Virus record (IMG/VR): IMGVR_UViG_3300032304_002285
Span: 62,001-126,000 of that record
Length of the DNA stretch: 64,000 nt
Direction: 5' to 3' (one strand)
From: a virus
Both the position numbers and the translations under genes were made by a program. Below, piece by piece: positions 5,392 to 53,100 of this stretch. The notes under the pieces were generated by a model. That model made no database searches, had not been told where the DNA came from, and saw only the letters and a list, made by a program, of their open reading frames with translations. Position 1 is the first letter of the stretch. Each line of letters opens with the position of its first letter.

Positions 5392-5715
5392 ATGGTAAAG
5401 AGCAAATCTCAGAAGCAAGTAGAGAGACGTAAGAAGATTGAGCATAACCGAAATGTTATGCAGAATCAGGGAAAGCCTCGTTATCTTCTGTATATCAAGG
5501 TTGACGGTGGTTGGAAAGCTGTGATGAGGTTTAAGACTATTACGGATGTAGATAAGCATTGTGAAAGTATGGAAGATATTCGGAAGAGAAATGCTTCTGA
5601 GTTGGTTGAGGCGAATATTGTTGAGGTGAAGACGGGTAAGGTAATTAGGCATGTTGCGCCTCATAAGGTTAGTGATCCGGCTATGTTGAGTGGATCGTTG
5701 GTGGCGAAGGTTTGA
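5392..5715 (+). CDS. Small basic hypothetical protein (107 aa)
   Basis: The gene has a CAAGGAGAGG ribosome site. The product begins with a very basic segment (MVKSKSQKQVERRKKIEH), then a compact beta-rich part (RYLLYIKVDGGWKAVMRF) and a helical, charged region. The basic N-terminus suggests nucleic-acid contact, but no family is recognised. It is the last protein gene before the tRNA island. Confidence 0.7.
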   Translation: MVKSKSQKQVERRKKIEHNRNVMQNQGKPRYLLYIKVDGGWKAVMRFKTITDVDKHCESMEDIRKRNASELVEANIVEVKTGKVIRHVAPHKVSDPAMLSGSLVAKV

Positions 5716-5733
5716 AAATAAATTTCAGGAAGT

Positions 5734-5763
5734 TTTGGATTTTCGGGTTCTCGCGGGTAAGAT
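5734..5763 (+). promoter_or_regulatory. Promoter of the TTTGGA-type family, upstream of the tRNA island
   Basis: TTTGGA at 5734-5739, an 18-base spacer ending GGG, and TAAGAT at 5758-5763. It shares TTTGGATTTT and the GGGTAA extended -10 with copies at 11344, 11804 and 13116. The first tRNA starts about 30 bases downstream. Confidence 0.65.
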
Positions 5764-5794
5764 AGGGTGTGACAAGAAGGTTGGTTGTAAGTGT

Positions 5795-5869
5795 TGCGGG
5801 ATATATCAGTGGTAGATTGCTAGCCTCATAAGCTAGATGTCGTGGGTTCGAGTCCCACTCCCGCTACCA
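5795..5869 (+). tRNA. tRNA with CAT anticodon (Met, or Ile if modified)
   Basis: A full cloverleaf is visible: anticodon stem CTAGC/GCTAG around the loop CTCATAA, T arm GTGGG-TTCGAGT-CCCAC and encoded CCA. Positions 1 and 72 are both T and cannot pair, a feature usually linked to initiator tRNA, but the anticodon stem lacks the three G-C pairs of initiators. The sequence does not settle whether C34 is modified to read AUA. Confidence 0.85.
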
Positions 5870-5879
5870 GTTTGAGATT

Positions 5880-5954
5880 CGGGTTGTCGTTTTAACATTT
5901 AAGACACAAGCCATGGGGCTTGAGATGCTGGTGTAAATCCAGCCGACTCGACCA
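5880..5954 (+). pseudogene. Degenerate tRNA-like sequence
   Basis: The seven-base acceptor CGGGTTG pairs with CGACTCG before A-CCA, and a T stem GCTGG/CCAGC is intact. However, the T loop is TGTAAAT rather than TTCRANY, the D loop has no GG, and the anticodon stem CAAGC/GCTTG encloses only six bases (CATGGG). It may be a decayed tRNA or a tRNA-shaped processing element. Confidence 0.45.
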
Positions 5955-5960
5955 AGTGTT

Positions 5961-5980
5961 GTTCTTTCAAAACTGAATAG
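5961..5980 (+). promoter_or_regulatory. boxA-like antitermination element, copy 1
   Basis: GTTCTTTCAAAACTGAATAG resembles the boxA leader of bacterial rRNA operons (GYTCTTTRAAAA). It lies 8 bases before the Ile tRNA. Two more copies precede tRNA genes at 6864 and 10441. Confidence 0.6.
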
Positions 5981-5988
5981 TTCTTTTT

Positions 5989-6062
5989 CGGCATGTAGCT
6001 CACTTGGTTAGAGCACCACCCTGATATGGTGGGGGTAGAAGGTTCGAGTCCTTCCATGCCGA
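5989..6062 (+). tRNA. tRNA-Ile (GAT)
   Basis: Acceptor CGGCATG/CATGCCG, D stem GCTC/GAGC, anticodon stem CCACC/GGTGG with loop CTGATAT, and T arm GAAGG-TTCGAGT-CCTTC. CCA is not encoded (CTT follows A73), so CCA must be added by an enzyme. Confidence 0.93.
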
Positions 6063-6078
6063 CTTATTTTCCCTGAAT

Positions 6079-6153
6079 GCCAGCATAGCTCAATGGTAGA
6101 GCACCTTACTTGTAATAAGGATGTCGGGGGTTCAAATCCCTCTGCTGGCTCCA
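6079..6153 (+). tRNA. tRNA-Thr (TGT)
   Basis: Acceptor GCCAGCA/TGCTGGC, anticodon stem CCTTA/TAAGG with loop CTTGTAA, T arm GGGGG-TTCAAAT-CCCTC, and encoded CCA. Confidence 0.93.
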
Positions 6154-6207
6154 TTTGCTTTTCTTGGTTTTAGTTCTATTTTGGGCTAAAGCAAATAGGG
6201 GGCGATT

Positions 6208-6846
6208 ATGAGAAGTGGGATGAGTTGTTCTGATGCTGGTAGGCTTGGTAAAGAAAAATCGCTTGCCTTGCAGCAAGCAATGAAACAAGAAAGAATAAAT
6301 AAATACTTAGAAAATCCGAAATTGTGTGGTACGTGTGGAGCAATCATACCATATAATAAAAGAGTAAATAATTTTTGTTCTTCTTCTTGTTTCGCATGCC
6401 ATAACAACAAACAAAGAAGTCTATTAAATCCTTGTGTTAATTTTTGTATGAATTGTGGTAAGGATCTGAAATCAAAAACTCTTTTGTTTTGTAGTGGAAG
6501 TTGTCATAAAAAACATTCACATAATAAATATATAGAGCGGTGGCTTGCTGGAGAAGAGTCTGGCGGTATTGGCAAGGATAAAGATATTACTAGCCATACA
6601 GTTCGTGACTGGGTTTTTAAAAAAAGTGGTGGTAAGTGTTCAGTTTGTGGCGGAAGTGATTGGATGGGCAAGAAGATGCCTTTGATTCTGGATCATATTG
6701 ATGGTCATTCAAAAAACAATCGTCCTGAAAATCTAAGGGCTGTTTGTGGTAATTGTGATATGCAGTTGCCGACATACAAAAGCAAAAACAAAGGAAATGG
6801 AAGGCATTATAGAAGGGAAAGGTATAAGAATGGATTGAGTTATTAG
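6208..6846 (+). CDS. HNH endonuclease (free-standing, in tRNA cluster)
   Basis: The 212-residue protein has several CxxC pairs that look like zinc fingers (LCGTCGAIIPYN, NFCMNCGKDL, KCSVCGGSDW) and a C-terminal HNH core. That core reads ILDHIDGHSKNNRPENLR then AVCGNCDMQ, giving DH as the first motif, the central N and the closing NCD. HNH enzymes of this type nick or cut DNA and often spread themselves as homing endonucleases between phage genes. It sits between Thr and Ala tRNA genes, a usual site for such elements. A GGGGG tract precedes the ATG. Confidence 0.85.
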   Translation: MRSGMSCSDAGRLGKEKSLALQQAMKQERINKYLENPKLCGTCGAIIPYNKRVNNFCSSSCFACHNNKQRSLLNPCVNFCMNCGKDLKSKTLLFCSGSCHKKHSHNKYIERWLAGEESGGIGKDKDITSHTVRDWVFKKSGGKCSVCGGSDWMGKKMPLILDHIDGHSKNNRPENLRAVCGNCDMQLPTYKSKNKGNGRHYRRERYKNGLSY

Positions 6847-6863
6847 ATTTGTGATTCAATTTA

Positions 6864-6883
6864 GTTCTTTAGTAATTGAATAG
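6864..6883 (+). promoter_or_regulatory. boxA-like antitermination element, copy 2
   Basis: GTTCTTTAGTAATTGAATAG lies 7 bases before tRNA-Ala. It matches the copies at 5961 and 10441 in GTTCTTT and TGAATAG with the same spacing. Confidence 0.55.
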
Positions 6884-6890
6884 TTTCTAT

Positions 6891-6967
6891 GGGGCATTAG
6901 CTCAGTTGGCTAGAGCGTTTGGTTTGCATCCAAAAGGCCATCGGTTCGAGCCCGATATGCTCCACCA
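6891..6967 (+). tRNA. tRNA-Ala (TGC)
   Basis: Acceptor GGGGCAT/ATGCTCC contains the G3-U70 wobble required by alanyl-tRNA synthetase. Anticodon stem TTTGG/CCAAA has loop TTTGCAT, the T arm is ATCGG-TTCGAGC-CCGAT, and CCA is encoded. Confidence 0.95.
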
Positions 6968-7007
6968 GTTTTTGTATCTTAGTTTATTGCCAAAGATGTT
7001 TGCAAGT

Positions 7008-7023
7008 TAAGCTATATAGCTTA
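7008..7023 (+). repeat. Perfect 16-base palindrome before HNH gene 2
   Basis: TAAGCTATATAGCTTA is a perfect palindrome 23 bases before the second HNH start, between tRNA-Ala and the ribosome site. It could be an operator or a cleavage site. Nothing else supports either role. Confidence 0.35.
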
Positions 7024-7046
7024 TATTCCTAAAAAAGGAGTAAGCC

Positions 7047-7538
7047 ATGCCAACTTGCAAAAGCTGTGGAGATAGATTTCCTACTTGGATCAAGATAGAT
7101 GGAAAGCAGAGATGTTTAAACAATAGAAAGTTTTGTTTAAAATGTTCTCCATTTGGAAGGCACAATACTAGTCCAACTCTTCATGTAGGATGCGAAAAAC
7201 TTTGCAATAAATGTGGTGAAAAAGATCCCAGTAAGTTTTATGGCAATAAGAGGCATATTTGTGGGAAATGCCATGCCAAGTATACTACTGAAAGAGGAAA
7301 ACGTAAAAAACAATTTGTTTGTGAAAAGCTGGGTGGTAAGTGTGTCTCATGTGGATATGATAAATATGTAGGTTCTCTTGATATTCATCATAAAGATCCA
7401 GCAAAGAAGGATTCTAATTTTAGGTCTAAAAGAGGATGGTCTGAAGAAAGAATATTAAAGGAAATAGAAAATTGTATCTTGCTTTGTCGGAATTGTCATG
7501 CAGCTTTTCATGCTGGAGAGTTAGCAATCGGTGTGTAG
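7047..7538 (+). CDS. HNH endonuclease, second copy type
   Basis: The 163-residue protein has Cys pairs that look like zinc ribbons (CKSCGDRF, CLKCSPF, CNKCGEKD, CGKCHAKY). Its C-terminal HNH core is LDIHHKDPAKKDSNFRS, then a spacer, then ILLCRNCHAAFHAG, with the HH, central N and NCH residues present. It has its own AAAGGAG site. It is unlike the HNH protein at 6208 outside the catalytic core, so the two look like separate arrivals. Its stop codon lies inside the acceptor stem of tRNA-Pro, so gene and tRNA overlap by 10 bases. Confidence 0.85.
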   Translation: MPTCKSCGDRFPTWIKIDGKQRCLNNRKFCLKCSPFGRHNTSPTLHVGCEKLCNKCGEKDPSKFYGNKRHICGKCHAKYTTERGKRKKQFVCEKLGGKCVSCGYDKYVGSLDIHHKDPAKKDSNFRSKRGWSEERILKEIENCILLCRNCHAAFHAGELAIGV

Positions 7539-7607
7539 CGCAGTTTGGTTTAGCGCGTCTGCCTTGGGCGCAGAAGGTCGGGGGTTCAAATCCCTCCACA
7601 CCGACCA
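7529..7607 (+). tRNA. tRNA-Pro (TGG)
   Basis: Acceptor CGGTGTG/CACACCG, D stem GCGC/GCGC, anticodon stem TCTGC/GCAGA with loop CTTGGGC, T arm GGGGG-TTCAAAT-CCCTC, and encoded CCA. The first 10 bases overlap the end of the upstream HNH gene. Confidence 0.94.
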
Positions 7608-7614
7608 TTTTCAT

Positions 7615-7915
7615 GAGGTTTCCAACTTGTGGCTGATTTCATCTTTTGTTCGGGATGAAGGCACTTACAAGAGGAGAACTGTAAGGTCCCAAGTAGGGCA
7701 GGAAGGGTAAGGCTGGGTCAATGCGGGTAAGAGTTTTCCTAACCGCAGTAGCCCGATATCTGGTAAATTAAAACACTGAACAACCAGATATAAGAGTAAA
7801 ATCTCTTCAATGCGGTGATGAACTTGTTGATCAGAGTTCTGAGCATTGTGGCTGAACAACTCGACTTGTTTGAGATGGGTAGGAAAGGTGGTTCCTTTCT
7901 TCTAGTTGGAAACCT
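7615..7915 (+). ncRNA. Unclassified structured RNA, about 300 nt, closed by a 13-bp helix
   Basis: GAGGTTTCCAACT at 7615-7627 pairs perfectly with AGTTGGAAACCTC at 7903-7915. In between lie ATATCTGGT/ACCAGATAT, CAATGC/GCATTG with inner GAACT/AGTTC, CTTACA/TGTAAG, TTCATC/GATGAA, TGCGG/CCGCA, AAGAG/CTCTT and GAAAGG/CCTTTC. There is no coding frame with a ribosome site. It fills the gap between tRNA-Pro and tRNA-Arg and does not show the conserved core of RNase P RNA. The folded domain is seen directly; the class is unknown. Confidence 0.6.
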
Positions 7916-7924
7916 CTCTATTCT

Positions 7925-7996
7925 GCTCCCGTAGTCTAATGGATAGGCACTTGCCTCCTAAGCAAGTCTATGAGAGTTCGATTCTCTCCGGGAGTA
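7925..7996 (+). tRNA. tRNA-Arg (CCT)
   Basis: Acceptor GCTCCCG/CGGGAGT with a G-U closing pair, anticodon stem CTTGC/GCAAG with loop CTCCTAA, and T arm GAGAG-TTCGATT-CTCTC. No encoded CCA. It reads AGG, a codon used heavily by genes in this window. Confidence 0.93.
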
Positions 7997-8049
7997 CTTT
8001 TTGTCTTTTATATTTATGGTCTAATAGGGATAATATTTTAGGAGAGACC

Positions 8050-8526
8050 ATGAAAAAGAATTTGAAGATTGCTGGTGAGATATTAAAGCTTGCTAAGGGT
8101 TTGGTGGGAATGACCAAACAAGAGGCAGATAAAGTCGCTTTTGTCATGAGGGAGTTTCCTAATCATAATAAAGTGAATGATAAGGTTAGGAAGGAAGTAA
8201 AGAAGTATAAGTTTTTAACCTTGGATAACATTAAGAAGTTTGGTCAATCTGCTTCTTTTATGAGAGGCATTGATGATTGGATAGATTATGTGATTTCGCA
8301 AGGTATGGAAAACGTTTATTCAACTAGCGGTTTTGATTATGAAGATGACAAGGATGTTCTCAATGCAATGAAGCATTATGAAGACATGGATTCTGAATTG
8401 TACAAAAAATCCAGAGATGTTTTAGAGGAAAGAGCGACAGATTTGGCTATAAATTCTGTAATGGAAGCACTCTATCAAGAGATTTCTTCTATTGAAAAGG
8501 CCATAGATAGGTCCAAAAAGTTATAA
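8050..8526 (+). CDS. Hypothetical helical protein with N-terminal tag helix
   Basis: The ATG at 8050 has an AGGAGAG site. An open frame reaching back to 7906 only reads through the Arg tRNA and is not used. The 158-residue product starts MKKNLKIAGEILKLAKGLVG, one of the clearest copies of the recurrent amphipathic helix. The rest is predicted mostly helical and charged, with no Cys and no known motif. It sits alone between two tRNA genes, with a possible -10 box (GATAAT) in GGGATAATATT about 15 bases before its ribosome site. Confidence 0.75.
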   Translation: MKKNLKIAGEILKLAKGLVGMTKQEADKVAFVMREFPNHNKVNDKVRKEVKKYKFLTLDNIKKFGQSASFMRGIDDWIDYVISQGMENVYSTSGFDYEDDKDVLNAMKHYEDMDSELYKKSRDVLEERATDLAINSVMEALYQEISSIEKAIDRSKKL

Positions 8527-8532
8527 TTAGTT

Positions 8533-8606
8533 GCGGGTTTAGCATAGTGGTAATGTGCCACCTTGCCAAGATGGTTACGCGGGTTCGACTCCCGCCATCT
8601 GCTCCA
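8533..8606 (+). tRNA. tRNA-Gly (GCC)
   Basis: Acceptor GCGGGTT/CATCTGC holds two G-U pairs and a mismatch at 7-66. Anticodon stem CCACC/GATGG has one C-A mismatch, with loop TTGCCAA. T arm GCGGG-TTCGACT-CCCGC is perfect and CCA is encoded. It starts 6 bases after the preceding stop codon. Confidence 0.85.
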
Positions 8607-8616
8607 AGGTTTTTAT

Positions 8617-8694
8617 TCTCCGGTAGCTCAATTGGCCAGAAGCACTTCACTCTTAATGAAGGGGTTGGGGGTTCAAGTCCCTCCCGGAGAACCA
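8617..8694 (+). tRNA. tRNA-Lys (CTT)
   Basis: Acceptor TCTCCGG/CCGGAGA, anticodon stem CTTCA/TGAAG with loop CTCTTAA, T arm GGGGG-TTCAAGT-CCCTC, and encoded CCA. The D arm has an extra A compared with usual spacing. Confidence 0.9.
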
Positions 8695-8708
8695 ATTTTT
8701 GTTTGTAT

Positions 8709-8785
8709 GCTCTGGTAGCTCAATTGGTTAGAGCACCAGCCTTTTAAGTTGGTTATTGGGAGTTCGAGTCTCCCCCAGAGCACCA
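8709..8785 (+). tRNA. tRNA-Lys (TTT)
   Basis: Acceptor GCTCTGG/CCAGAGC, D stem GCTC/GAGC, anticodon stem CCAGC/GTTGG with loop CTTTTAA, T arm GGGAG-TTCGAGT-CTCCC, and encoded CCA. Confidence 0.94.
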
Positions 8786-8792
8786 ATTTTAT

Positions 8793-8866
8793 TCCCTCGT
8801 GGTGTAATGGTAGCACGAAACACTGTTAATGTTTCTGTCTTGGTTCAAATCCAGGCGAGGGAGCCA
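8793..8866 (+). tRNA. tRNA-Asn (GTT)
   Basis: Acceptor TCCCTCG/CGAGGGA, D stem GGTG/GCAC, anticodon stem AAACA/TGTTT with loop CTGTTAA, T arm CTTGG-TTCAAAT-CCAGG, and encoded CCA. Confidence 0.94.
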
Positions 8867-8874
8867 AATACCTA

Positions 8875-9007
8875 CATGCTCAATTGCCAGTCTGACGCAT
8901 GAGGTTTTAATGACTGGCTAAAGTCTGGGTGTATTAGGAAACTTACGGTGATGGAACCCAGAACAGAGGGTAAAGCCTCTGCCAAAACTTCAAATAAAAG
9001 GTTTTGG
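8875..9007 (+). ncRNA. Unclassified structured RNA with pseudoknot potential
   Basis: CATGC (8875-8879) pairs with GCATG (8897-8901), and GCCAGTC (8886-8892) with GACTGGC (8912-8918). The two helices interleave, as in an H-type pseudoknot. Three further hairpins follow: TCTGGGT/ACCCAGA, CAGAGG/CCTCTG and CCAAAAC/GTTTTGG. It lies between tRNA-Asn and tRNA-His with no coding frame. Confidence 0.5.
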
Positions 9008-9034
9008 TAAACCGTTTTAGAGATTTCTATGGAT

Positions 9035-9110
9035 GGTGGTTTTGTTGTAAAGGAAGCATGGATGGTTGTGAACCATCAGGTGTAGGGTTCAAGTCCCACA
9101 TTCCACCCCA
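9035..9110 (+). tRNA. tRNA-His (GTG)
   Basis: Anticodon stem GATGG/CCATC surrounds the loop TTGTGAA. The acceptor has the extra 5' G (position -1, base 9035) opposite C73, as expected for histidine tRNA, and CCA is encoded. Acceptor pairs 5-68 and 6-67 are T-T mismatches, and the T stem has a bulged A. It is more diverged than its neighbours. Confidence 0.8.
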
Positions 9111-9130
9111 AGTTTTTAGCGTAGGTGTTT

Positions 9131-9207
9131 GGGGGTATAGCTCAATTGGCCAGAGCATCGGTTTGTCACGCCGAAGGTTGCGGGTTCGATTCCCGCTACT
9201 CCCGCCA
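9131..9207 (+). tRNA. tRNA-Asp (GTC)
   Basis: Acceptor GGGGGTA/TACTCCC, D stem GCTC/GAGC, anticodon stem TCGGT/GCCGA with loop TTGTCAC, T arm GCGGG-TTCGATT-CCCGC, and G73-CCA. Confidence 0.94.
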
Positions 9208-9216
9208 GTTTTATAA

Positions 9217-9293
9217 GGGATTGTAGCTCAATTGGATAGAGCATCTGATTACGAATCAGAAGGTTGGGAGTTCAACTCTCCCCATTCCCACCA
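9217..9293 (+). tRNA. tRNA-Arg (ACG)
   Basis: Acceptor GGGATTG/CATTCCC has one T-T mismatch. Anticodon stem TCTGA/TCAGA has loop TTACGAA, the T arm is GGGAG-TTCAACT-CTCCC, and CCA is encoded. A34 would need conversion to inosine by host TadA to read CGC. Confidence 0.93.
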
Positions 9294-9298
9294 GATTT

Positions 9299-9370
9299 GT
9301 CCCGTTCGATCAATGGTAAGGTCATTAGGTTCTCAGCCTAGGGATAGCGGTTCGACTCCGCTACGGGATA
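9299..9370 (+). tRNA. tRNA-Glu (CTC)
   Basis: Acceptor GTCCCGT/ACGGGAT, D stem GATC/GGTC, anticodon stem TTAGG/CCTAG with loop TTCTCAG, and T arm AGCGG-TTCGACT-CCGCT. No encoded CCA. Confidence 0.9.
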
Positions 9371-9386
9371 CTTTAAGAAGGGATTT

Positions 9387-9460
9387 GACCCGTTGGAGGA
9401 AATGGATAACTCACTTGGTTTTCATCCAAGAGATTAGCGGTTCAACCCCGCTACGGGTCA
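9387..9460 (+). tRNA. tRNA-Glu (TTC)
   Basis: Acceptor GACCCGT/ACGGGTC, anticodon stem CTTGG/CCAAG with loop TTTTCAT, and T arm AGCGG-TTCAACC-CCGCT. No encoded CCA. Its 3' half is almost the same as the adjacent Glu(CTC) tRNA, which suggests tandem duplication. Confidence 0.9.
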
Positions 9461-9468
9461 CTTTAACG

Positions 9469-9720
9469 CCACTAAGGGACTAGGTTGCAAGTAGTCCAGA
9501 GTGGAAATCATCCAGGATCTTGGATAATCTCTTTACATAGGGATTATAGAAGAGAATGGGTGTAGTCGGAACTTGTGGGCAGGAAAGTTGGGCATACTCT
9601 TCGCCATCCGACTCTAAATAATTCACGTAATGTCACGAAAGCAGGGTACGGCTGTATAGCCCGATGGAGATTGTCCTGCTTGCTGGAGGGTGATGGTCCT
9701 AGCCCCTCCAATTTTTTTCA
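9469..9720 (+). ncRNA. Unclassified structured RNA ending in a terminator
   Basis: An extended hairpin CCACT-GGACTA / TAGTCC-AGTGG opens the element. ATAATC/GATTAT follows. GAAGAG (9549) pairs with CTCTTC (9597) while AGTCGG (9564) pairs with CCGACT (9608), an interleaved, pseudoknot-like pattern. AGCAGG/CCTGCT encloses GGCT-GTAT-AGCC, and a terminator ends the run. There is no plausible coding frame. It lies after tRNA-Glu and before a promoter. No known class is recognised. Confidence 0.5.
9685..9718 (+). terminator. Rho-independent terminator inside the tRNA island
   Basis: GGAGGG pairs with CCCCTCC (one base extra on the 3' side) over a 12-base loop and is followed by AATTTTTTT. A new promoter starts 20 bases later. 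Confidence 0.75.
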
Positions 9721-9736
9721 AAACTTTTTTAGGATC

Positions 9737-9769
9737 TTTGGATTTAGAAGTAGTTCTGGGTGATATAAT
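9737..9769 (+). promoter_or_regulatory. Promoter, TTTGGA-type, variant
   Basis: TTTGGA at 9737 and GGGTGATATAAT ending at 9769. The spacer is 18 bases to TGATAT or 21 to the better TATAAT. It follows a terminator and precedes the gene at 9806. Confidence 0.55.
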
Positions 9770-9805
9770 GATGTAAAGAGAACGTAGTGAGAAGGGGATT
9801 CGAGA

Positions 9806-10084
9806 ATGAGTGAAAGTGTTGAAGATCTGAAGCGTCAGGTTGCCCAGTGGAAATCGGTTGCGGCTTATCTGGCTGAGTGTCATGCTGCTTCTGCTGAGAC
9901 TGTTGCTGAGCAGAAGAAGTCTTCCAAGTATGAGAAGAAGCGCCATGCTGAGATTTGCAAGAAGGCGGCTATGATGTTGAAGCATGGGGATCTTGTTGGG
10001 GTAGTTGATCGGAGGTATGCCAAAGAAGGTTTCATTGAAGTGATTGAGCGTTGTGAGTTGGCGAAGGTTGAGTGTGAGAAGTAA
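9806..10084 (+). CDS. Small coiled-coil-like protein (92 aa)
   Basis: The gene has its own promoter-like sequence and a GAAGGGG ribosome site, and ends 11 bases before tRNA-Gly. The product is almost entirely helical and charged (DLKRQVAQWKSVAAYLAE, then EQKKSSKYEKKRHAEICK) and has four Cys residues spread along the chain. No family is recognised. Its placement inside the tRNA island could mean a role in RNA handling, but nothing in the sequence shows this. Confidence 0.7.
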   Translation: MSESVEDLKRQVAQWKSVAAYLAECHAASAETVAEQKKSSKYEKKRHAEICKKAAMMLKHGDLVGVVDRRYAKEGFIEVIERCELAKVECEK

Positions 10085-10095
10085 GTTTTGATAGT

Positions 10096-10169
10096 GCAGG
10101 TATCGTATAGTGGCAATACCCTAGTTTTCCAAACTAGCGCGGTGGGTTCGATTCCCACTACCTGCTCCA
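10096..10169 (+). tRNA. tRNA-Gly (TCC)
   Basis: Acceptor GCAGGTA/TACCTGC, D stem GTAT/ATAC, anticodon stem CTAGT/ACTAG with loop TTTCCAA, T arm GTGGG-TTCGATT-CCCAC, and encoded CCA. Confidence 0.94.
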
Positions 10170-10181
10170 AAGGTTTAAGAT

Positions 10182-10328
10182 TGGTCGGCAAGGTTTGGAT
10201 GTTCTGTGAAAGCTGACACTTGACTGTTATCAGATAGGATCGCAACCTGTTTGAGTCAAGATGCCTGGGGAACAGGCTTCAGGCGGAACGCAAGAATATC
10301 ACGGGTTCAAATCCCGTCCGATCAACCA
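10182..10328 (+). ncRNA. tRNA-like RNA of 147 nt with a large internal domain
   Basis: The 3' end is a normal tRNA end: T arm ACGGG-TTCAAAT-CCCGT, then CCGATCA-A-CCA. The acceptor pairs with TGGTCGG at 10182-10188, 130 bases upstream. The interior has no ordinary anticodon arm; instead CTTGACT/AGTCAAG and GCCTG/CAGGC helices are seen. After the 5' acceptor comes CAAGGTTTGGAT, similar to CATGGTTTCGAT of the nearby tmRNA. It could be a tRNA with an insertion or a tmRNA-like molecule without an evident tag frame. Confidence 0.5.
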
Positions 10329-10350
10329 ATTTTGAGGTCTTAATCGTACG

Positions 10351-10419
10351 GTGTTGAGCAGAACACAGAGGCGATGAATCCCATAGAACTGCTAATTCTA
10401 TGATGGGAAAGACTTCATC
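10351..10419 (+). ncRNA. Hairpin pair between tRNA-like element and tRNA-Val
   Basis: GTGTT/AACAC forms a small hairpin. GATGAA/TTCATC then encloses CCCATAGAA / TTCTATG-A-TGGG around the seven-base loop CTGCTAA. The loop looks like an anticodon loop reading GCT (Ser), but no D or T arm is present. Confidence 0.35.
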
Positions 10420-10440
10420 TAAGTTTTGAGTAAGAGGTTA

Positions 10441-10460
10441 GTTCTTTAAAAATTGAATAG
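10441..10460 (+). promoter_or_regulatory. boxA-like antitermination element, copy 3
   Basis: GTTCTTTAAAAATTGAATAG, 6 bases before tRNA-Val, is the copy closest to a bacterial rRNA boxA (GCTCTTTAAAAA). Confidence 0.65.
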
Positions 10461-10466
10461 TTCTGT

Positions 10467-10543
10467 GGGCAGTTAGCTCAGTTGGTTAGAGCATTTGGTC
10501 TACACCCAAAATGTCGGGGGTTCGAATCCCTCACTGCCTACCA
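10467..10543 (+). tRNA. tRNA-Val (TAC) with C33
   Basis: Acceptor GGGCAGT/ACTGCCT, D stem GCTC/GAGC, anticodon stem TTTGG/CCAAA with loop TCTACAC, T arm GGGGG-TTCGAAT-CCCTC, and encoded CCA. Position 33 is C instead of the almost universal T. Confidence 0.88.
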
Positions 10544-10554
10544 TTTTAAGTATT

Positions 10555-10639
10555 GGCCGGGTGGCGAAAAGGCAGACGCAACAGACTTAAAATCTGTCGG
10601 ATTTTATCCGTACGGGTTCAAATCCCGTCCCGGCTACCA
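10555..10639 (+). tRNA. tRNA-Leu (TAA)
   Basis: A class II tRNA with a long variable arm (CGGAT/ATCCG). Acceptor GGCCGGG/CCCGGCT, anticodon stem ACAGA/TCTGT with loop CTTAAAA, T arm ACGGG-TTCAAAT-CCCGT, and encoded CCA. It reads TTA, the commonest Leu codon in the first 4 kb. Confidence 0.95.
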
Positions 10640-10643
10640 ATTT

Positions 10644-10860
10644 CAAATAAGTGGTCCCTGCTTGATCGTCCCAGTGATAAAAGCAAAGATCATTAAAAAT
10701 TGCTGCCACTTATTTGAGAACTTTTCGGCTTTCTTGTAAAGCCGATGGTGGAGGCGGTTAGGGAAACCTAATTGCCCTAGCGACACATGCTGGACTAGTG
10801 AGGCTGTAGTCTCATGAAACAAGTTGTGTGGCTTTCCGGTAAGAAGTAACCGGGCTTTCG
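10644..10860 (+). ncRNA. Unclassified structured RNA upstream of tmRNA
   Basis: A perfect 11-bp helix CAAATAAGTGG (10644-10654) / CCACTTATTTG (10706-10716) closes a domain with an inner TGATC/GATCA helix. It is followed by hairpins CGGCTTT/AAAGCCG, TTAGG-GAAA-CCTAA and CCGG-TAAGAAGTAA-CCGG. There is no coding frame. It fills the space between tRNA-Leu and the tmRNA and could be a separate RNA or a 5' leader removed during maturation. Confidence 0.5.
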
Positions 10861-10867
10861 TTCAATT

Positions 10868-11271
10868 GGGCCTGACATGGTTTCGATCAAGTGAATGAGG
10901 GTTAGGATTGCATGCAGAGGATGATCGTTGGCCTCTTAAAACTTCGATCAAGTAAGTAACTGCGGAAACTCTTGAGTTCCCCGCTATGCCCATTGCTGCC
11001 TGATCTAGGGTAGTAAAGGGTATGGTCTAAGCCATCAGCAAAGTCTATAAGGCTGATGGGGTTGTCTTAATGATTCGCTCTTGAGACACACAGAATGATA
11101 GGCTGGCTTCAAGGTGATGCCGGATAGCTAAGAAGCGAGAGTTCTGACGGCTGGATGCGCTTAACCTGCTGTGAGGGGAAAAGGCATTGAGAAAAACAAA
11201 TCACAGACAAGCATGTAGAGTCTTGCCGGAAAGCATTTGAGACCGGGGTTCGACTCCCCGCAGGTCCACCA
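10868..11271 (+). ncRNA. ssrA: Transfer-messenger RNA (tmRNA)
   Basis: The 404-nt gene has a tRNA-like end: 5' GGGCCTG pairs with 3' CAGGTCC before A-CCA, including the G3-U70 pair that makes it an alanine acceptor. T arm CGGGG-TTCGACT-CCCCG is perfect. Conserved tmRNA segments are visible: GGTTTCGAT near the 5' end, GTTGGCCTCTTAAAA before the tag, and AGACAAGCATGTAG before the 3' domain. The tag frame at 10962-11003 encodes AETLEFPAMPIAA then TGA, ending in the hydrophobic-Ala-Ala signal for ClpXP-type proteolysis. A later helix CCATCAGC/GCTGATGG fits the pseudoknot region. tmRNA with SmpB rescues stalled ribosomes. A terminator follows. Confidence 0.95.
10962..11003 (+). other. tmRNA tag-peptide reading frame
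   Basis: The resume codon is GCG after AGTAAGTAACT. The 13 codons give AETLEFPAMPIAA and end at TGA. With the alanine carried by tmRNA, the expected tag is A-AETLEFPAMPIAA. Confidence 0.85.
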
Positions 11272-11279
11272 CAAACATA

Positions 11280-11319
11280 GGGATATCAAGGAGTTACGGC
11301 TTCTTGGTATCCCTTTTTT
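11280..11319 (+). terminator. Rho-independent terminator after tmRNA
   Basis: An 11-bp stem GGGATATCAAG / CTTGGTATCCC with one G-U pair, followed by TTTTTT, closes the RNA island. Confidence 0.9.
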
Positions 11320-11880: not shown

Positions 11881-12498
11881 ATGTTGAACATTTGCTTGTT
11901 GAAAATCTTGGATAAAAACAATCCGACTCCCGCTATTGATGCATTGATGAAGGTTGGATTGAGCAATGTTGAGGCTCAAGATGCTGTTGTTGAGCTTTCG
12001 GGGTCATTTCTTTCTTTGGTTGCTGTTAGGACTGAAGATATCTGGCCTGTTGATTTGAGTGAGTTTTTCGTTTTTGAGTTTATTCAAAGGGTTGAAATTA
12101 CTCTTGAGACAGCTTTGTTTCCCAAGGAAAAGATTCATGGGATTCAGGCTATCCGTGCTGCCACGGGAATGGGCTTGGTGGATTCCAAGGATACGATTGA
12201 GAATCTTTTTATGGGAGTGCATACCAAGATTCAGTCTAAGCCTGAAGAGGTTGAGAATTTGAGGAAATGGTTTACTCTTACTGCTGAGGAGTTGGGTCCG
12301 GTTCCTCAGCCTTATGTTCCTGGTCGGGTTGTTCAAAAAAACACGATTAGCCATTGTGTTGGTAGTAGTCATAAAGAAGAGGCAATGGAGCACATGTCTG
12401 CCTTTGCCAAGGAGCTTTTGGATGAAAAGAAATGGGAAGCTGCTCAGAACATTTGCAACTTGTTGAGCATTTTGAAGACTGTTGAAGAATATCAATAA
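11881..12498 (+). CDS. L7/L12 C-terminal-domain-like protein, paralogue 1
   Basis: Residues about 85-130 contain HGIQAIRAATGMGLVDSK, which matches the alpha-loop-alpha signature (K..VIK.vR..TGLGLKEAK) of the bacterial ribosomal protein bL12 C-terminal domain, the part that contacts translation factors. The N-terminal 65 residues and the C-terminal segment (MEHMSAFAKELLDEKKWE then NICNLLSILKTVEEYQ) are shared only with the two paralogues downstream. At 205 residues it is longer than bL12 (about 120), and the bL12 N-terminal dimer and hinge regions are not evident. It may bind translation GTPases or mimic the stalk, which is inference. Confidence 0.75.
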   Translation: MLNICLLKILDKNNPTPAIDALMKVGLSNVEAQDAVVELSGSFLSLVAVRTEDIWPVDLSEFFVFEFIQRVEITLETALFPKEKIHGIQAIRAATGMGLVDSKDTIENLFMGVHTKIQSKPEEVENLRKWFTLTAEELGPVPQPYVPGRVVQKNTISHCVGSSHKEEAMEHMSAFAKELLDEKKWEAAQNICNLLSILKTVEEYQ

Positions 12499-12512
12499 GG
12501 AGCATTGAGGAA

Positions 12513-13100
12513 ATGAAGAGGATTCGGCTAGGTTTTATTAAGCATACTTATAGTTCTCAGGCTGCTATTGGCGCTCTTGAGGTGAACGGTGTGGTTCGAG
12601 AGCAAGCCAAAGAGGCTGTTGCTTGTATGATTAAAGGGATTAGGTCTTTTATTGTTACGACTAATGACAAGTGGGTAGCTGATTTGAATGAGTTTTTTGA
12701 TTTTGAGTTTGTTGATAAATATTATGTTTCTCTTATCAAGGTTTTCTATCCCAGCCAGAAATTTGAAACCATCAGGAGTCTTCGGGCTGCTACTGGTTTG
12801 GAGTTGAAAGAAGCCAAGGAAGTTTATGAGGCGGTTCTGGGTGGGGGAACGAAAAGGATTGAAGTTAACCCTGATGTTGTGGATGATTTGAAGAAGTGGT
12901 TTGATATTATTTATGAGCAATATGTTATTAAATCGGAAGAATTGCCTGCTGTTGTGAGTCCGGTTGGTAGTAATAAGGATTTGGCGATAGAGCATCTTTC
13001 TTCTTATGTCAAAGAGCTTCTTGATGACAGGAAGATGATGGCTGCAAAGAGTGTGTGTAATCTTTTGGGTATTTTGAAGAATGTTGAGGATTACCAATAA
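12513..13100 (+). CDS. L7/L12 C-terminal-domain-like protein, paralogue 2
   Basis: Fourteen bases after paralogue 1 and probably co-transcribed with it. The core is FETIRSLRAATGLELKEAKE, the closest of the three to true bL12 (TGLGLKEAK), followed by VNPDVVDDLKKWFDI. The N-terminal half shares the pattern A..AL...G....QA..AV with paralogues 1 and 3, and the C-terminus ends CNLLGILKNVEDYQ. The product has 195 residues. The spread of substitutions among the three copies suggests an old triplication with divergence rather than a recent duplication. Confidence 0.75.
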   Translation: MKRIRLGFIKHTYSSQAAIGALEVNGVVREQAKEAVACMIKGIRSFIVTTNDKWVADLNEFFDFEFVDKYYVSLIKVFYPSQKFETIRSLRAATGLELKEAKEVYEAVLGGGTKRIEVNPDVVDDLKKWFDIIYEQYVIKSEELPAVVSPVGSNKDLAIEHLSSYVKELLDDRKMMAAKSVCNLLGILKNVEDYQ

Positions 13101-13115
13101 AAAGCTTGTGAATGG

Positions 13116-13144
13116 TTTGGATTTCTGTCTTTTTTGGGTAATAC
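13116..13144 (+). promoter_or_regulatory. Promoter, TTTGGA-17-TAATAC type
   Basis: TTTGGA, 17 bases ending TTTGGG, TAATAC-AT. It drives paralogue 3 at 13186. The leader AAGGAGATCGGCAAA also matches the leader of paralogue 1 (TAGGAGATTGGCAAA). Confidence 0.75.
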
Positions 13145-13185
13145 ATAGATGTCAATAAGGATTGAGAACAAAGGAGATCGGCAAA

Positions 13186-13758
13186 ATGGCTAGTGTGACT
13201 TTGAAGAACATCAAGGGTGGGATTTCCATGAAGGATGCGGAGTTGGCTCTTTGTGGGGCTGGTGTTAGTAATTATCAGGCGGAACAGGCTGTTGCTAATT
13301 TGTCCAGGAATGTTCCCAATCATTTTGTGGTTGAGACCAATGATCCTTGGGGTGTTAATCTTTATAATTACTTTGATCTTGAGCTTAGTCAGGCTGTGAG
13401 TGTTCGTTTGCATCGGATGTTGTTTCCTGGGGAGAAGATTGCCACCATCAAGGAGCTTCGGGCTGCTACGAATATGGGCTTGAAGGATTCCAAGGACATT
13501 GTTGATGCGGTTCATGTTGGGGATTCTCGGATTGTCAATGTGATGAGTGTTGATCGTATTAATAAATTGAAGGACTGGTTTGATCTTAAGGAAGTTTCTC
13601 CGAATGGCTCTTCGGTTCAGGTTGGAAACAACAAAGAGGAAGCCATGAAGTATATGGCTGCTTTTGCCAAGGATCTTTTGGATGAGAAGAAGTGGGAGTC
13701 TGCTCAGAACATTTGCAATTTGCTGAGCATTTTGAAGACGGTTGAAGAATATCAATAA
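13186..13758 (+). CDS. L7/L12 C-terminal-domain-like protein, paralogue 3
   Basis: The ATG at 13186 lies 9 bases after AAGGAG; an upstream in-frame ATG at 13162 has no such site. Of 190 residues, the central block IKELRAATNMGLKDSKDI matches the bL12 C-terminal-domain signature. The C-terminal block (MKYMAAFAKDLLDEKKWE, NICNLLSILKTVEEYQ) is nearly identical to paralogue 1, so copies 1 and 3 are the closest pair. The promoter and 5' leader are duplicated as well, which shows that a whole transcription unit was copied. Confidence 0.75.
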   Translation: MASVTLKNIKGGISMKDAELALCGAGVSNYQAEQAVANLSRNVPNHFVVETNDPWGVNLYNYFDLELSQAVSVRLHRMLFPGEKIATIKELRAATNMGLKDSKDIVDAVHVGDSRIVNVMSVDRINKLKDWFDLKEVSPNGSSVQVGNNKEEAMKYMAAFAKDLLDEKKWESAQNICNLLSILKTVEEYQ

Positions 13759-20340: not shown

Positions 20341-21135
20341 ATGGCATACTATCCTGGGACATATATCACTACGGGTGTAGCAGGTAGTTCAAACTACAAT
20401 GATCTTGTGGATAATTATTTAACCCCAAGATTGTTGACGTTTAGGCAAATTATTATTAATGATGAGCCTGCTGTTTTAAAGCCAGACAAGGTTACTTGGA
20501 AAACTACTTATGGGAATTGGAATCAGGGTTCTGACCTTTTTGTTAGGAAAAATGGAACTGTTATTAGTTCAGCAGGGGTTACAAATATTGATTATAGTCA
20601 TGGGTGTTTTCGGGCTAATCCGGTAGATGTTGGATTAGATGGAAAGTCTAGTGACACGGTTGAGGTTACATACGAGTGGGATTATTTCCCTGTTATTGTT
20701 TTAAAAAATTTTTTAATGCAATCGGTTCAGATTGTGAATACTAGTGCTTGGGGTTCTGCGACTTCTTATGAGATAGATACGATGCCTGGATACTGGAAGG
20801 GTGTTGTTACTGATTTGGCATTTGCATTAGCGATAGAAAGAATTTTACTTGATTATGATTTGTGGAAGTGGAGATTAGTTTACGCCATTGGTCCTGGGGA
20901 CGTAGAATCAAGCGGTGGTGATATTGTGGGTCAATTACAGACTCTTAAGCAGAATGCTGAAGAGAGGGCTTATCGTACTCTTGAGAATGAGAAGTTTAAG
21001 ATGGGGAATAGAGTATCTGTTCCTACTGTTCATTATTACGATTCTGTTCGTGGTATGGGTACAAGTGCTGGAAGGCATGGTATTCCTTTTGTAGGTGGAA
21101 GATTACGGGGATGGACTCCCAATCGCATAATGTAG
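20341..21135 (+). CDS. Virion structural protein, probable head-tail junction
   Basis: This is the first gene of the structural operon. The 264-residue product is beta-rich (VTWKTTYGNWNQGSDLFV, TVEVTYEWDYFPVIVL) with Tyr/Gly-rich N- and C-termini and a helical segment (TDLAFALAIERILLDYDLW). There is no signal peptide and no catalytic motif. The position just upstream of an adaptor-like gene and a tail-terminator-like gene suggests a neck or connector component. I do not recognise a named family. Confidence 0.6.
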   Translation: MAYYPGTYITTGVAGSSNYNDLVDNYLTPRLLTFRQIIINDEPAVLKPDKVTWKTTYGNWNQGSDLFVRKNGTVISSAGVTNIDYSHGCFRANPVDVGLDGKSSDTVEVTYEWDYFPVIVLKNFLMQSVQIVNTSAWGSATSYEIDTMPGYWKGVVTDLAFALAIERILLDYDLWKWRLVYAIGPGDVESSGGDIVGQLQTLKQNAEERAYRTLENEKFKMGNRVSVPTVHYYDSVRGMGTSAGRHGIPFVGGRLRGWTPNRIM

Positions 21136-50117: not shown

Positions 50118-53100
50118 ATGTCTAGAATGTGGGTTCGCAATGATGGCTTTTTAATTATTGAATGTGATTATGAGCAACGGAATTTGGTAAAAGAGATAGG
50201 TGGGAGATGGGATGTAGTAGAAAGGGCTTGGGTTGTTGCATTTAGTATTTCCAATGTGGAATATTTAGTTGACGAGATTGATTCTTTAACGGTTGATCAG
50301 TCTGTTGAAGATAAGCTGCATCAACAGATAGAAAAAGAAGACAAGCTAAATAAAATCCGGGAAATGTCCAAACAGGATGTTCCGGTTCGTCTTCTTGTCC
50401 CTGGTCTTAAGGAGAATTGTAGACTCTATAATTACCAAAAACTGGGTGTTGTCTATTCTTTAACAAATGCAGAAGGGGTATTAATTGCCGACGAAATGGG
50501 TTTGGGAAAATTTTGTGCTATAAACACCCCCGTATTAACAGCTTATGGCTGGCAACCAATTGGTTCTTTGAAGGTCGGGGACATGGTTTATTCGAGGGCT
50601 GGAACCCTTAGCCGGGTAAATGGAGTTTATCCTCAGGGTGTGAAAGAATTACTGAAAGTAACTTTTAGTGATGGGTTTTCATGTGAGTGTGGGTGGGAGC
50701 ATCTTTGGATAGCCCAGACGGACAACAATGCGAAGAGGAAGCAGGGGTGGAGAGTTCTCGACACTCGACAATTATTTGGTGACTTACACTACAAGGATAA
50801 AAGGGCCAAGTGGCGGATACCCTTGGTCGAACCAATCGCCTATAACACTAAGACGTATATCATACCACCATATCTAATGGGAGTGTTGCTTGGGGATGGT
50901 TCCTTGACAGATGGAGTAACCTTTGTTCCTGGGGATGATGAAACTCCATTTCTTGTACAGAAGGCTGTACCTCCGGGTTATAGCTTGCATAAGAATGCTG
51001 ATTATGGAACGTCAACTCGGTATTCTATTGTTTATAAAGGCAGTGGATACGAGAACCCACTAAAAACTCAAATTGTTAAATATGGACTAAATGTTACTGG
51101 GGAAAGGAAGTTTATTCCTCATGAATATCTTGAAGGAAGCATAGAACAACGGAAGCAGTTGTTGGCTGGCTTATTGGATACAGATGGTTCTGCAATGAAA
51201 GCTAGGACTAGGTTTTCAACAGTATCGGAACGTCTTGCTGATGACGTTATCGAGCTTGTTCATAGTCTGGGTGGAATGGCTACTAAGTCTCTTGTTCCTG
51301 GCAGATTAAGGGTAAGGGATGGGAAGCAGGTTCAGGAGCAGGATTGTTGGCAATTGGTTGTTAGAACTAGTTTTAATCCATTTTCCCGTCCATCTTCTAT
51401 TGCGAAGTGGAAGAGATCATCAAAACTTGTCAGGAATATTGTAAGTATTGAGCCTGTACGGTATGATGATGCGGTATGTATTGCTGTTGATTCCAAAGAT
51501 CATTCGTATGTTATTCAGCATCATATTGTAACACACAATACCCTGCAAGGTCTTGCTATTTCGTTGGTTAGGAAGAATAAGAACGGGGCAAAAAAGTGTC
51601 TTATTGTCACTCCTGCTTCTTTAAAGTACAATTGGCCAATTGAAATCGAAAAATTTACAGATGAGAAGTTTGTGGTAATTGATGGGAGTCCAGAAGAGAG
51701 GATTGCTCAATGGATGCGGGATGACGTTTATTATTACGTTGTTAATTTTGAGCTTATTCTTGAGGATTTGTTTGGAGGTAGGGAATATAAAGAAGATCCA
51801 GATGATGATGAAGAGAAGACTGCCAGAAAAAAAGAATTAAAAGCTAAGGCTCAATTTAGGAAGAAAATTTTAAGTTCTGTAAAAGAACGAGATTGGGATA
51901 TGATCCTTGTGGATGAATCCCATGCCCTTAAATCTCATGCTAGCAAGAGAAGTAAGTGTATAAAGCAATTGAAGAGTAAATTCCGAGTGGCTTTAACAGG
52001 TACTCCGATGGATGGGAGATTAGAAGAGTTACATTCAGTTATGGAATTTGTTTATCCTGGGTTGTTGGAATCAAGAACCAGATTTCTTCAGAAGCATGCC
52101 ATTACTGATTTCTGGGGAAAGGTGACTGGGTATAAAGATATTGATGATGTAAAGAAGCGGATAGCTCATTGTTTTATTCGCAGATTAAAGGCTGATGTTT
52201 TAAAGGACTTGCCTAATAAAATCTATCAGAATAGGATTGTGGTTCTATCAAAGGAAGAAGAAAAAATCTACAAGGCGTTAGCTTCTTCGGGTCATGTAGC
52301 AACCCAAGATACTGAAGCCATGGTTACTGTGATCAGATGTAAGCAGTTTTGTGATTATCCTGGATTAATTGGTGAGAATTGCAAGGTGAATTCTAAGCTT
52401 GAGGCTTTTAAGGAGATTTTGGATGAGGTAATTATTCAAAATGGGCATAAGGTTCTGGTTTTTAGTCAGTATAAGCAGATGATAGATGTTTTGGTGAAAG
52501 TAATGGAAGAGATGAATCTGAAATATCTTCGGATTGACGGAGATACACCAAAGCAGCTTCGAGCGGGGATGCAAAAGCAATTCAACGAGGATAAATCAAT
52601 AGATTCGATGATTGGCACAGAGGCTATGTCTACTGGTTTGAATTTCACCTCTGCTGATTATGTAATTAATTATGATGACAATTGGGCTCCTGCTATTATG
52701 GCTCAGAGGGAGGATCGGTGTGTTATAGAGGGTCAGTATGTCAATACGGATCGCGGGATGGTTAAGATTGAGGATGTTAAGACTGGGGATATGGTTTTAA
52801 CTCATCGGGGTAGATATCGGAAGGTATTAGACGTATGGAATAAACTTCATAGATCTAATACAACTGGTGGATTAACAACGGAAATCAAATACAGAAGATA
52901 TGGCTATCCATTAAAAGTAACCCATGATCATTTAGTTTTGATCCTTAGGGGTGAAAAAATAGATTGGATGGAGGCAGTTGATGTCCGTCCTCGTGATTTT
53001 TTATTATCTCCTATTTTGTCTGAAGAAAGAAATGACCCTGGTGAATTGGAATTTCCAGAGGAGTTTTCTTTTAATAAGATGCAGAGATTAAATGGTTCTG

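What the first reader, a model, noticed from the sequence alone, without database searches (positions are those of the whole stretch)
10868..11271. Phage-encoded tmRNA with the tag AETLEFPAMPIAA
A complete tmRNA is present: alanine-type acceptor with G3-U70, perfect T arm, conserved tmRNA segments and a 13-codon tag frame ending hydrophobic-Ala-Ala and TGA. Phage tmRNAs are known but rare. A phage tmRNA next to tRNAs and L12-like genes suggests control of ribosome rescue during infection, possibly with a different tag from the host's.
Basis: partly seen in the sequence, partly recalled or inferred. Interest (0 to 1): 0.85.

Follow-up and report, generated by a model that had tools for sequence, protein, structure and literature searches.

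The report
Phage-encoded tmRNA with divergent tags
A large bacterial virus carries its own complete copy of the RNA that frees stuck ribosomes and marks unfinished proteins for destruction; its relatives all keep this gene but each writes a different mark that always ends in two alanines, so it is a real, maintained viral gene of a kind already known from other phages.

Summary
ARAGORN and Rfam RF00023 (112.1 bits, E 5e-43) both place a complete one-piece tmRNA exactly at 10868-11271 with tag AETLEFPAMPIAA. The record is a 180.8-kb uncultured phage with 32 tRNA genes covering all 20 amino acids and a CCA-adding enzyme, but no SmpB. I found relatives by a structural protein (50-57% identity). 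All 14 relative contigs that reach the site (10 distinct lineages) carry a tmRNA upstream of, and co-oriented with, the same structural gene. Their RNAs are only 45-57% identical, yet the acceptor stem (always G3-U70), T stem and pseudoknot 1 are kept through compensatory changes. Tags differ greatly (8-27 residues), but all 11 end in Ala-Ala, the last Ala using all four synonymous codons: selection on the degron itself. One relative has a group-I-like intron in the T loop; another has an HNH element beside a duplicated 3' end. Most likely it is a working phage tmRNA that uses host SmpB, AlaRS and a Clp protease. Phage tmRNAs, including with L7/L12 genes in huge phages, are already published. 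The L12 link is not conserved in relatives, and the host and its tag remain unknown. New member of a known kind, with unusually variable tags.

The parts
10868..11271 (+). tmRNA gene (ssrA), one-piece form, 404 nt, CCA encoded
   Evidence: ARAGORN; Rfam RF00023 112.1 bits, E 5.3e-43, full model
10868..10874 (+). acceptor stem 5' strand GGGCCTG (G3 of G3-U70)
   Evidence: 7/7 pairs with 11261-11267; G-U at pair 3 in 11/11 family members
10917..10950 (+). pseudoknot 1: GAGG/CCTC and TGATCG/CGATCA
   Evidence: all pairs formed here; family own-paired 44/44 and 60/62 against 84% and 59% when partners are swapped between phages (registered by hand)
10962..11003 (+). tag reading frame GCG...GCC TGA, AETLEFPAMPIAA
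   Evidence: ARAGORN; same resume position (92-100 of gene) and upstream AA at -4/-3 in all 11 members
11244..11271 (+). T arm CGGGG TTCGACT CCCCG, acceptor 3' strand CAGGTCC, discriminator A and CCA
11279..11314 (+). intrinsic-terminator-like hairpin, 16 pairs, followed by TTTTTT, 8 nt after the tmRNA
   Evidence: the strongest terminator-like site of the region
5795..10639 (+). tRNA array upstream, same strand: 17 ARAGORN tRNAs plus tRNA-His-like 9036-9107 found by Rfam only

Best explanation
The locus is a functional phage-encoded one-piece tmRNA. It is transcribed with or behind the tRNA array and ends at the hairpin at 11279-11314. It is matured by RNase P and other host enzymes, charged with alanine by host AlaRS through G3-U70, and carried by host EF-Tu and host SmpB (the phage record encodes none) into ribosomes stalled on truncated mRNA. 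Translation then switches to the tag frame, adds (Ala)-AETLEFPAMPIAA and stops at TGA, freeing the ribosome and giving the stalled product a hydrophobic-Ala-Ala degron for a host Clp-type protease. With the phage's full 20-amino-acid tRNA set and CCA-adding enzyme it most likely keeps ribosomes usable while host RNAs are being destroyed. Shown: the RNA, its frame, its conservation and synteny, the CCA enzyme gene, absence of SmpB from the record held. Inferred: expression, charging, tagging, proteolysis and benefit to the phage.
For: Full-length covariance match and ARAGORN call. tmRNA in all 14 relative contigs that reach the site, always upstream of the same structural gene on the same strand, 3-22 kb away. 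Sequence only 45-57% identical to the window's while acceptor 77/77, T stem 54/55, PK1 104/106 pairs are formed with several compensatory pair types, G3-U70 in 11/11. All 11 tags end Ala-Ala; the last Ala uses all four codons (GCT 4, GCC 3, GCG 3, GCA 1). Resume position constant at nt 92-100. Strong terminator. CCA-adding enzyme in this record (E 8.8e-59) and in the relative G002, 54% identical over 511 alignment columns, where the tmRNA lacks an encoded CCA.
Against: No expression or biochemical data. No SmpB in any of 13 family records, all of them possibly incomplete. More distant relatives (42-48% identity) lack the tmRNA where 20-40 kb upstream is held (G021, G023), so it is not essential to the wider group. 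PK2-PK4 are aligned with low confidence. GC-rich end codons may partly reflect RNA pairing in helix 5.
Confidence: 0.8

Rival explanations
1. The phage tmRNA is mainly a decoy: it titrates SmpB or competes with host tmRNA, diverting or inhibiting host trans-translation, as proposed for the TLD-only tmRNA of mycobacteriophage DS6A.
For: TLD-only phage RNA is known to inhibit tmRNA in E. coli (PMC4131195, PMC11915505). No phage SmpB, so competition for host SmpB is unavoidable.
Against: A decoy needs no tag, yet the frame is open in 11/11 members and always ends Ala-Ala with synonymous variation; PK1 is kept.
Confidence: 0.1
2. A passenger or remnant of the host ssrA, picked up with tRNA genes or through use of ssrA as an integration site, no longer selected.
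For: It lies in a tRNA array; host ssrA is a common integration site and prophage-like contigs in IMG/VR give many tmRNA hits.
Against: Complete gene, conserved position in 11 lineages, compensatory changes at about 50% sequence identity. Relatives keep it although ARAGORN finds only 2 tRNAs in most of G002.
Confidence: 0.05
3. A working tmRNA whose tag has been changed to alter the fate of tagged proteins (escape from host adaptors, another protease, or another outcome) rather than simple rescue and degradation. This is a refinement of the best explanation, not exclusive of it.
For: Tags range from 8 to 27 residues in one phage family, with no motif common to all at the N-terminal side; long FG-bearing tags also occur in other viral contigs with tRNA arrays.
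Against: Every tag keeps the terminal Ala-Ala expected of ordinary ClpXP degrons; tags vary between bacterial phyla too, and the hosts' own tags are unknown.
Confidence: 0.15

Closest known systems
Bacterial one-piece tmRNA (ssrA; Rfam RF00023)
   Same: TLD with G3-U70, T arm, PK1, resume codon context, tag frame ending in hydrophobic-Ala-Ala, stop, CCA
   Different: Encoded by a phage; no SmpB in the record; 404 nt; tag not matched in 84,980 species with a strict pattern for its type
Phage tmRNAs: Bxz1-group mycobacteriophages, Wildcat, Bacillus phage G (PMC4131195); Streptomyces phages with tag ANSNFALAA
   Same: Complete ssrA in a large phage rich in tRNAs
   Different: Unrelated phage lineage, different tags; only short blast matches (32-56 nt) to the window's tmRNA
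Huge phages with tmRNA, SmpB and L7/L12 (Al-Shayeb et al. 2020, PMC7162821)
   Same: Same kind of translation genes in uncultured large phages
   Different: No SmpB here; L12 similarity limited to about 30 residues
Methylophilales phage Melnitz ssrA (PMC9004378)
   Same: Complete phage ssrA kept in a phage group
   Different: Melnitz has the permuted two-piece form under a glutamine riboswitch; this one is one-piece
Mycobacteriophage DS6A TLD-only tmRNA (PMC4131195, PMC11915505)
   Same: Phage RNA with the tmRNA tRNA-like domain
   Different: DS6A lacks the tag frame and inhibits tmRNA; this one is complete

Membership tests
tmRNA (RF00023) | Covariance match above the curated threshold over the whole model | tested here: met
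   112.1 bits against 47, model 1-374
tmRNA (RF00023) | tRNA-like domain with alanine identity G3-U70 and CCA end | tested here: met
   GGGCCTG/CAGGTCC, A73, CCA encoded
tmRNA (RF00023) | Pseudoknot 1 next to the resume codon | tested here: met
   Both stems pair here and covary in the family
tmRNA (RF00023) | Pseudoknots 2-4 | tested here: inconclusive
   CM aligns them with low posterior probability
tmRNA (RF00023) | Open tag frame with resume codon, degron-like end and stop | tested here: met
   AETLEFPAMPIAA TGA; 11/11 members end Ala-Ala
tmRNA (RF00023) | Charging by AlaRS, SmpB binding, tagging activity | not testable with these tools
   needs biochemistry
Phage-owned (not host contamination) gene | Conserved at a syntenic place in related phage genomes | tested here: met
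   14 relative contigs of 10 lineages plus the window, upstream of the same structural gene, same strand
Phage with complete trans-translation system | Own SmpB | tested here: not met
   PF01668 absent from G000 and 12 related records; records may be incomplete
Ribosomal protein bL12 (neighbouring genes) | Whole L7/L12: N-terminal dimerisation domain and full C-terminal domain | tested here: not met
   Pfam and PDB matches cover only about 30-50 residues inside 195-205-aa proteins; model resembles L7/L12-CTD and ClpS weakly, best E 0.05

The most novel reading that the evidence does not exclude
In this phage family tmRNA tags evolve under different rules from bacterial ones: the terminal Ala-Ala is fixed while length (8-27 residues) and the rest diverge freely or adaptively, so that the phage takes over ribosome rescue with tags that host adaptors do not recognise, and possibly with a different proteolytic outcome.
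Probability: 0.2. Interest if true: 0.65.

Novelty: new member of a known kind. Interest (0 to 1): 0.42.

Why it matters
It turns a single-sequence curiosity into a family of eleven phage tmRNAs with conserved structure and position but very different tags. That is a natural experiment on what a tmRNA tag must contain (here, only the terminal Ala-Ala is constant) and a good test set for whether phages use ribosome rescue to sustain translation during infection or to redirect host proteolysis.

Tried and rejected
Host identification failed: no close phage in the GenBank collection and no relative of the structural protein in 84,980 prokaryote genomes. Searching relatives with the L12-like protein found none. 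A DnaB search found one relative and an identical contig. ARAGORN tags for L170 (AHLQNARVSTTSG) and L201 (AGYKSIDNS...) were rejected: the covariance alignment (L170) and the resume context put the frames at GKTVGSVTRWFFGPASAAPMLAAA and DNSIAFPGARAFALAA. Weak second tmRNA-model hits elsewhere in the record mostly fall on tRNA genes; one falls on the odd tRNA-like RNA ending at 10328. PHROG 'terminase' matches of 50118-54005 were rejected as probably insert-borne.

Full report
The observation. ARAGORN and the Rfam tmRNA covariance model (112.1 bits, E 5.3e-43, model 1-374) both place a complete tmRNA at exactly 10868-11271(+), with tag AETLEFPAMPIAA. The acceptor stem pairs 7/7 with G3-U70 and an encoded CCA, the T arm is perfect, both stems of pseudoknot 1 pair, and the resume codon GCG lies in the usual ...AACT context. 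A 16-pair terminator-like hairpin follows 8 nt after the gene. The gene folds 2.6 sd better than shuffles. PK2-PK4 are only weakly resolved by the model.

Setting. The window is 62001-126000 of a 180,758-bp IMG/VR virus record. The neighbours include virion proteins, DnaB-like helicase, primase, DNA polymerase, NAD-dependent ligase, ribonucleotide reductase and a CCA-adding enzyme. Together with a second array at record 2.9-12.7 kb, there are 32 tRNA genes covering all 20 amino acids, one of them with a CUA anticodon. No SmpB was found.

Relatives. A structural protein (20341-21135) recruited relatives in viral contigs at 50-57% identity. A whole-record search with RF00023 found a tmRNA in every such contig that reaches the site: G002, G005/6, G008/9, G010/11, G012, G014, G015, G016/17, G018, G019. 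These are 14 contigs of 10 lineages, 11 lineages with the window. In all, the tmRNA is upstream of the structural gene on the same strand, 3.0-22.1 kb away. The contigs without a match at this identity (G004, G007, G013) are only 5-10 kb long; G001 holds the identical DnaB gene but should end before the site, judging by the window's gene order. In the more distant group (42-48% identity) G021 and G023 hold about 20 kb or more upstream and have none, so the gene was gained or lost within the wider group.

Conservation. The RNAs are 45-57% identical to the window's. Registered by hand on sequence, acceptor pairs are formed in 77/77 cells, T stem 54/55, PK1 44/44 and 60/62; swapping 3' strands between phages gives 82%, 83%, 84% and 59%. 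G3-U70 is present in 11/11. Hand registration favours pairing, but the acceptor ends are fixed by position. Three members lack an encoded CCA; one of these phages (G002) has a CCA-adding enzyme 54% identical to the window phage's.

Tags. AETLEFPAMPIAA (window), GNVLQFPGVQGARALAA, AKNILAFPGLAQEKLAA, DNSIAFPGARAFALAA, GNVINLFGAERAPALAAA, ANTFGKVIRGFFGVAAEATPMLAAA, GKTVGSVTRWFFGPASAAPMLAAA, AKRTLGKVIRGVFGAADEAVPMLAAA, AKTVTGTMVRMLSFSSETSEVQELAAA, ADVPVLLAA, ANTYQMAA. Lengths are 8-27, median 17, against a commonest length of 10 in the tmRNA database (PMC11915505). All 11 end Ala-Ala; the final Ala uses all four codons, which argues for selection on the peptide end. Helix 5 pairing may add some constraint on these codons. 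Many share an F-P-G or F-G centre, consistent with common descent of the tag.

Mobile elements in the gene. In G008/G009 the T loop is interrupted by 422 nt (L175:1886-2307) with a U before and a G at the end, as group I introns require; rejoining gives a perfect T arm and acceptor. Rfam did not recognise the insert, so 'group I' rests on boundaries, site and visible P7-like segments. T-loop group I introns in tmRNA are known (PMC11915505). In G014 a 25-bp copy of the tmRNA 3' end, this one with CCA, lies 559 bp downstream, and the interval holds an ORF that reads like an HNH endonuclease (by eye).

L12-like genes. Three tandem paralogues (11881-13758) match only about 30-50 residues of the L7/L12 C-terminal domain. 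A moderate-confidence model (pLDDT 71.6) resembles both L7/L12-CTD and the ClpA adaptor ClpS, all with E of 0.05 or more. No relative has them. They should not be used as evidence for a ribosome-rescue module.

How it works. The best reading is a functional tmRNA relying on host SmpB, AlaRS, EF-Tu and Clp protease; decoy and passenger readings are disfavoured by the conserved tag end and by covariation. What it does for the phage (sustaining ribosomes while host RNA is degraded) is inference.

Novelty. Phage tmRNAs are known: 2.3% of 18,146 genomes (PMC9004378), earlier examples in PMC4131195, and huge phages with tmRNA, SmpB and L7/L12 (PMC7162821). This is a new member of a known kind; the added value is the family-wide pattern of fixed Ala-Ala with otherwise free tags. 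Whether the tag differs from the host's is untested; the strict genome scan found none of this tag type, but it tested one spacing only.

Noticed in passing
window 5795-10639 and L009:2907-12689 (record 2.9-12.7 kb): 32 tRNA genes covering all 20 amino acids, with HNH endonuclease-like ORFs (6208-6846, 7047-7538) inside the array.
   Followed up: partly
L009:5701-5775 (record 5701-5775): tRNA with CUA anticodon (called tRNA-Pyl by ARAGORN), a possible amber suppressor; TAG ends only 5 of 44 long ORFs of the window.
   Followed up: partly
window 10182-10328 and 5880-5954; L022 downstream of its tmRNA: tRNA-like RNAs with 7-bp acceptor stem (all G3-U70), T arm and CCA, but no recognisable anticodon arm; the relative's has a GAAA tetraloop hairpin where the anticodon arm should be. 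Could be Ala-chargeable tRNA mimics or degenerate tRNAs.
   Followed up: partly
window 7608-7924, 8867-9035, 10640-10867: Spacers in the tRNA array fold far better than shuffles (z -3.3 to -4.8; the 8867 segment was folded together with the tRNA-His-like gene); 7608-7924 is closed by a 13-bp stem. No Rfam match at the gathering threshold; possible unknown structured RNAs.
   Followed up: partly
window 11881-13758: Three tandem paralogues with an L7/L12-CTD-like helical hairpin; the predicted fold also resembles ClpS.
   Followed up: partly
L175:1886-2307: 422-nt group-I-like intron in the T loop of a relative's tmRNA.
   Followed up: partly
L188:5419-6002: tmRNA 3' end duplicated (25 bp) around an interval holding an HNH-like ORF.
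   Followed up: partly
window 50118-54005: Helicase-like ORF with insert-like segments: residues about 132-474 are missing from the otherwise collinear relative, and the C-terminal part also matches regions of unrelated families, as inteins would.
   Followed up: partly
L078, L085, L074 (other viral contigs): tmRNAs beside tRNAs with long tags, e.g. GKAKNVVNAIFGRGSRNESFVGGELALAA and GKHQFAPTVAEADAILARFGYAEAGELAAA.
   Followed up: no
L175:912-988: Marginal type-P5 twister ribozyme match (38.0 bits against 37.6) upstream of the tmRNA.
   Followed up: no
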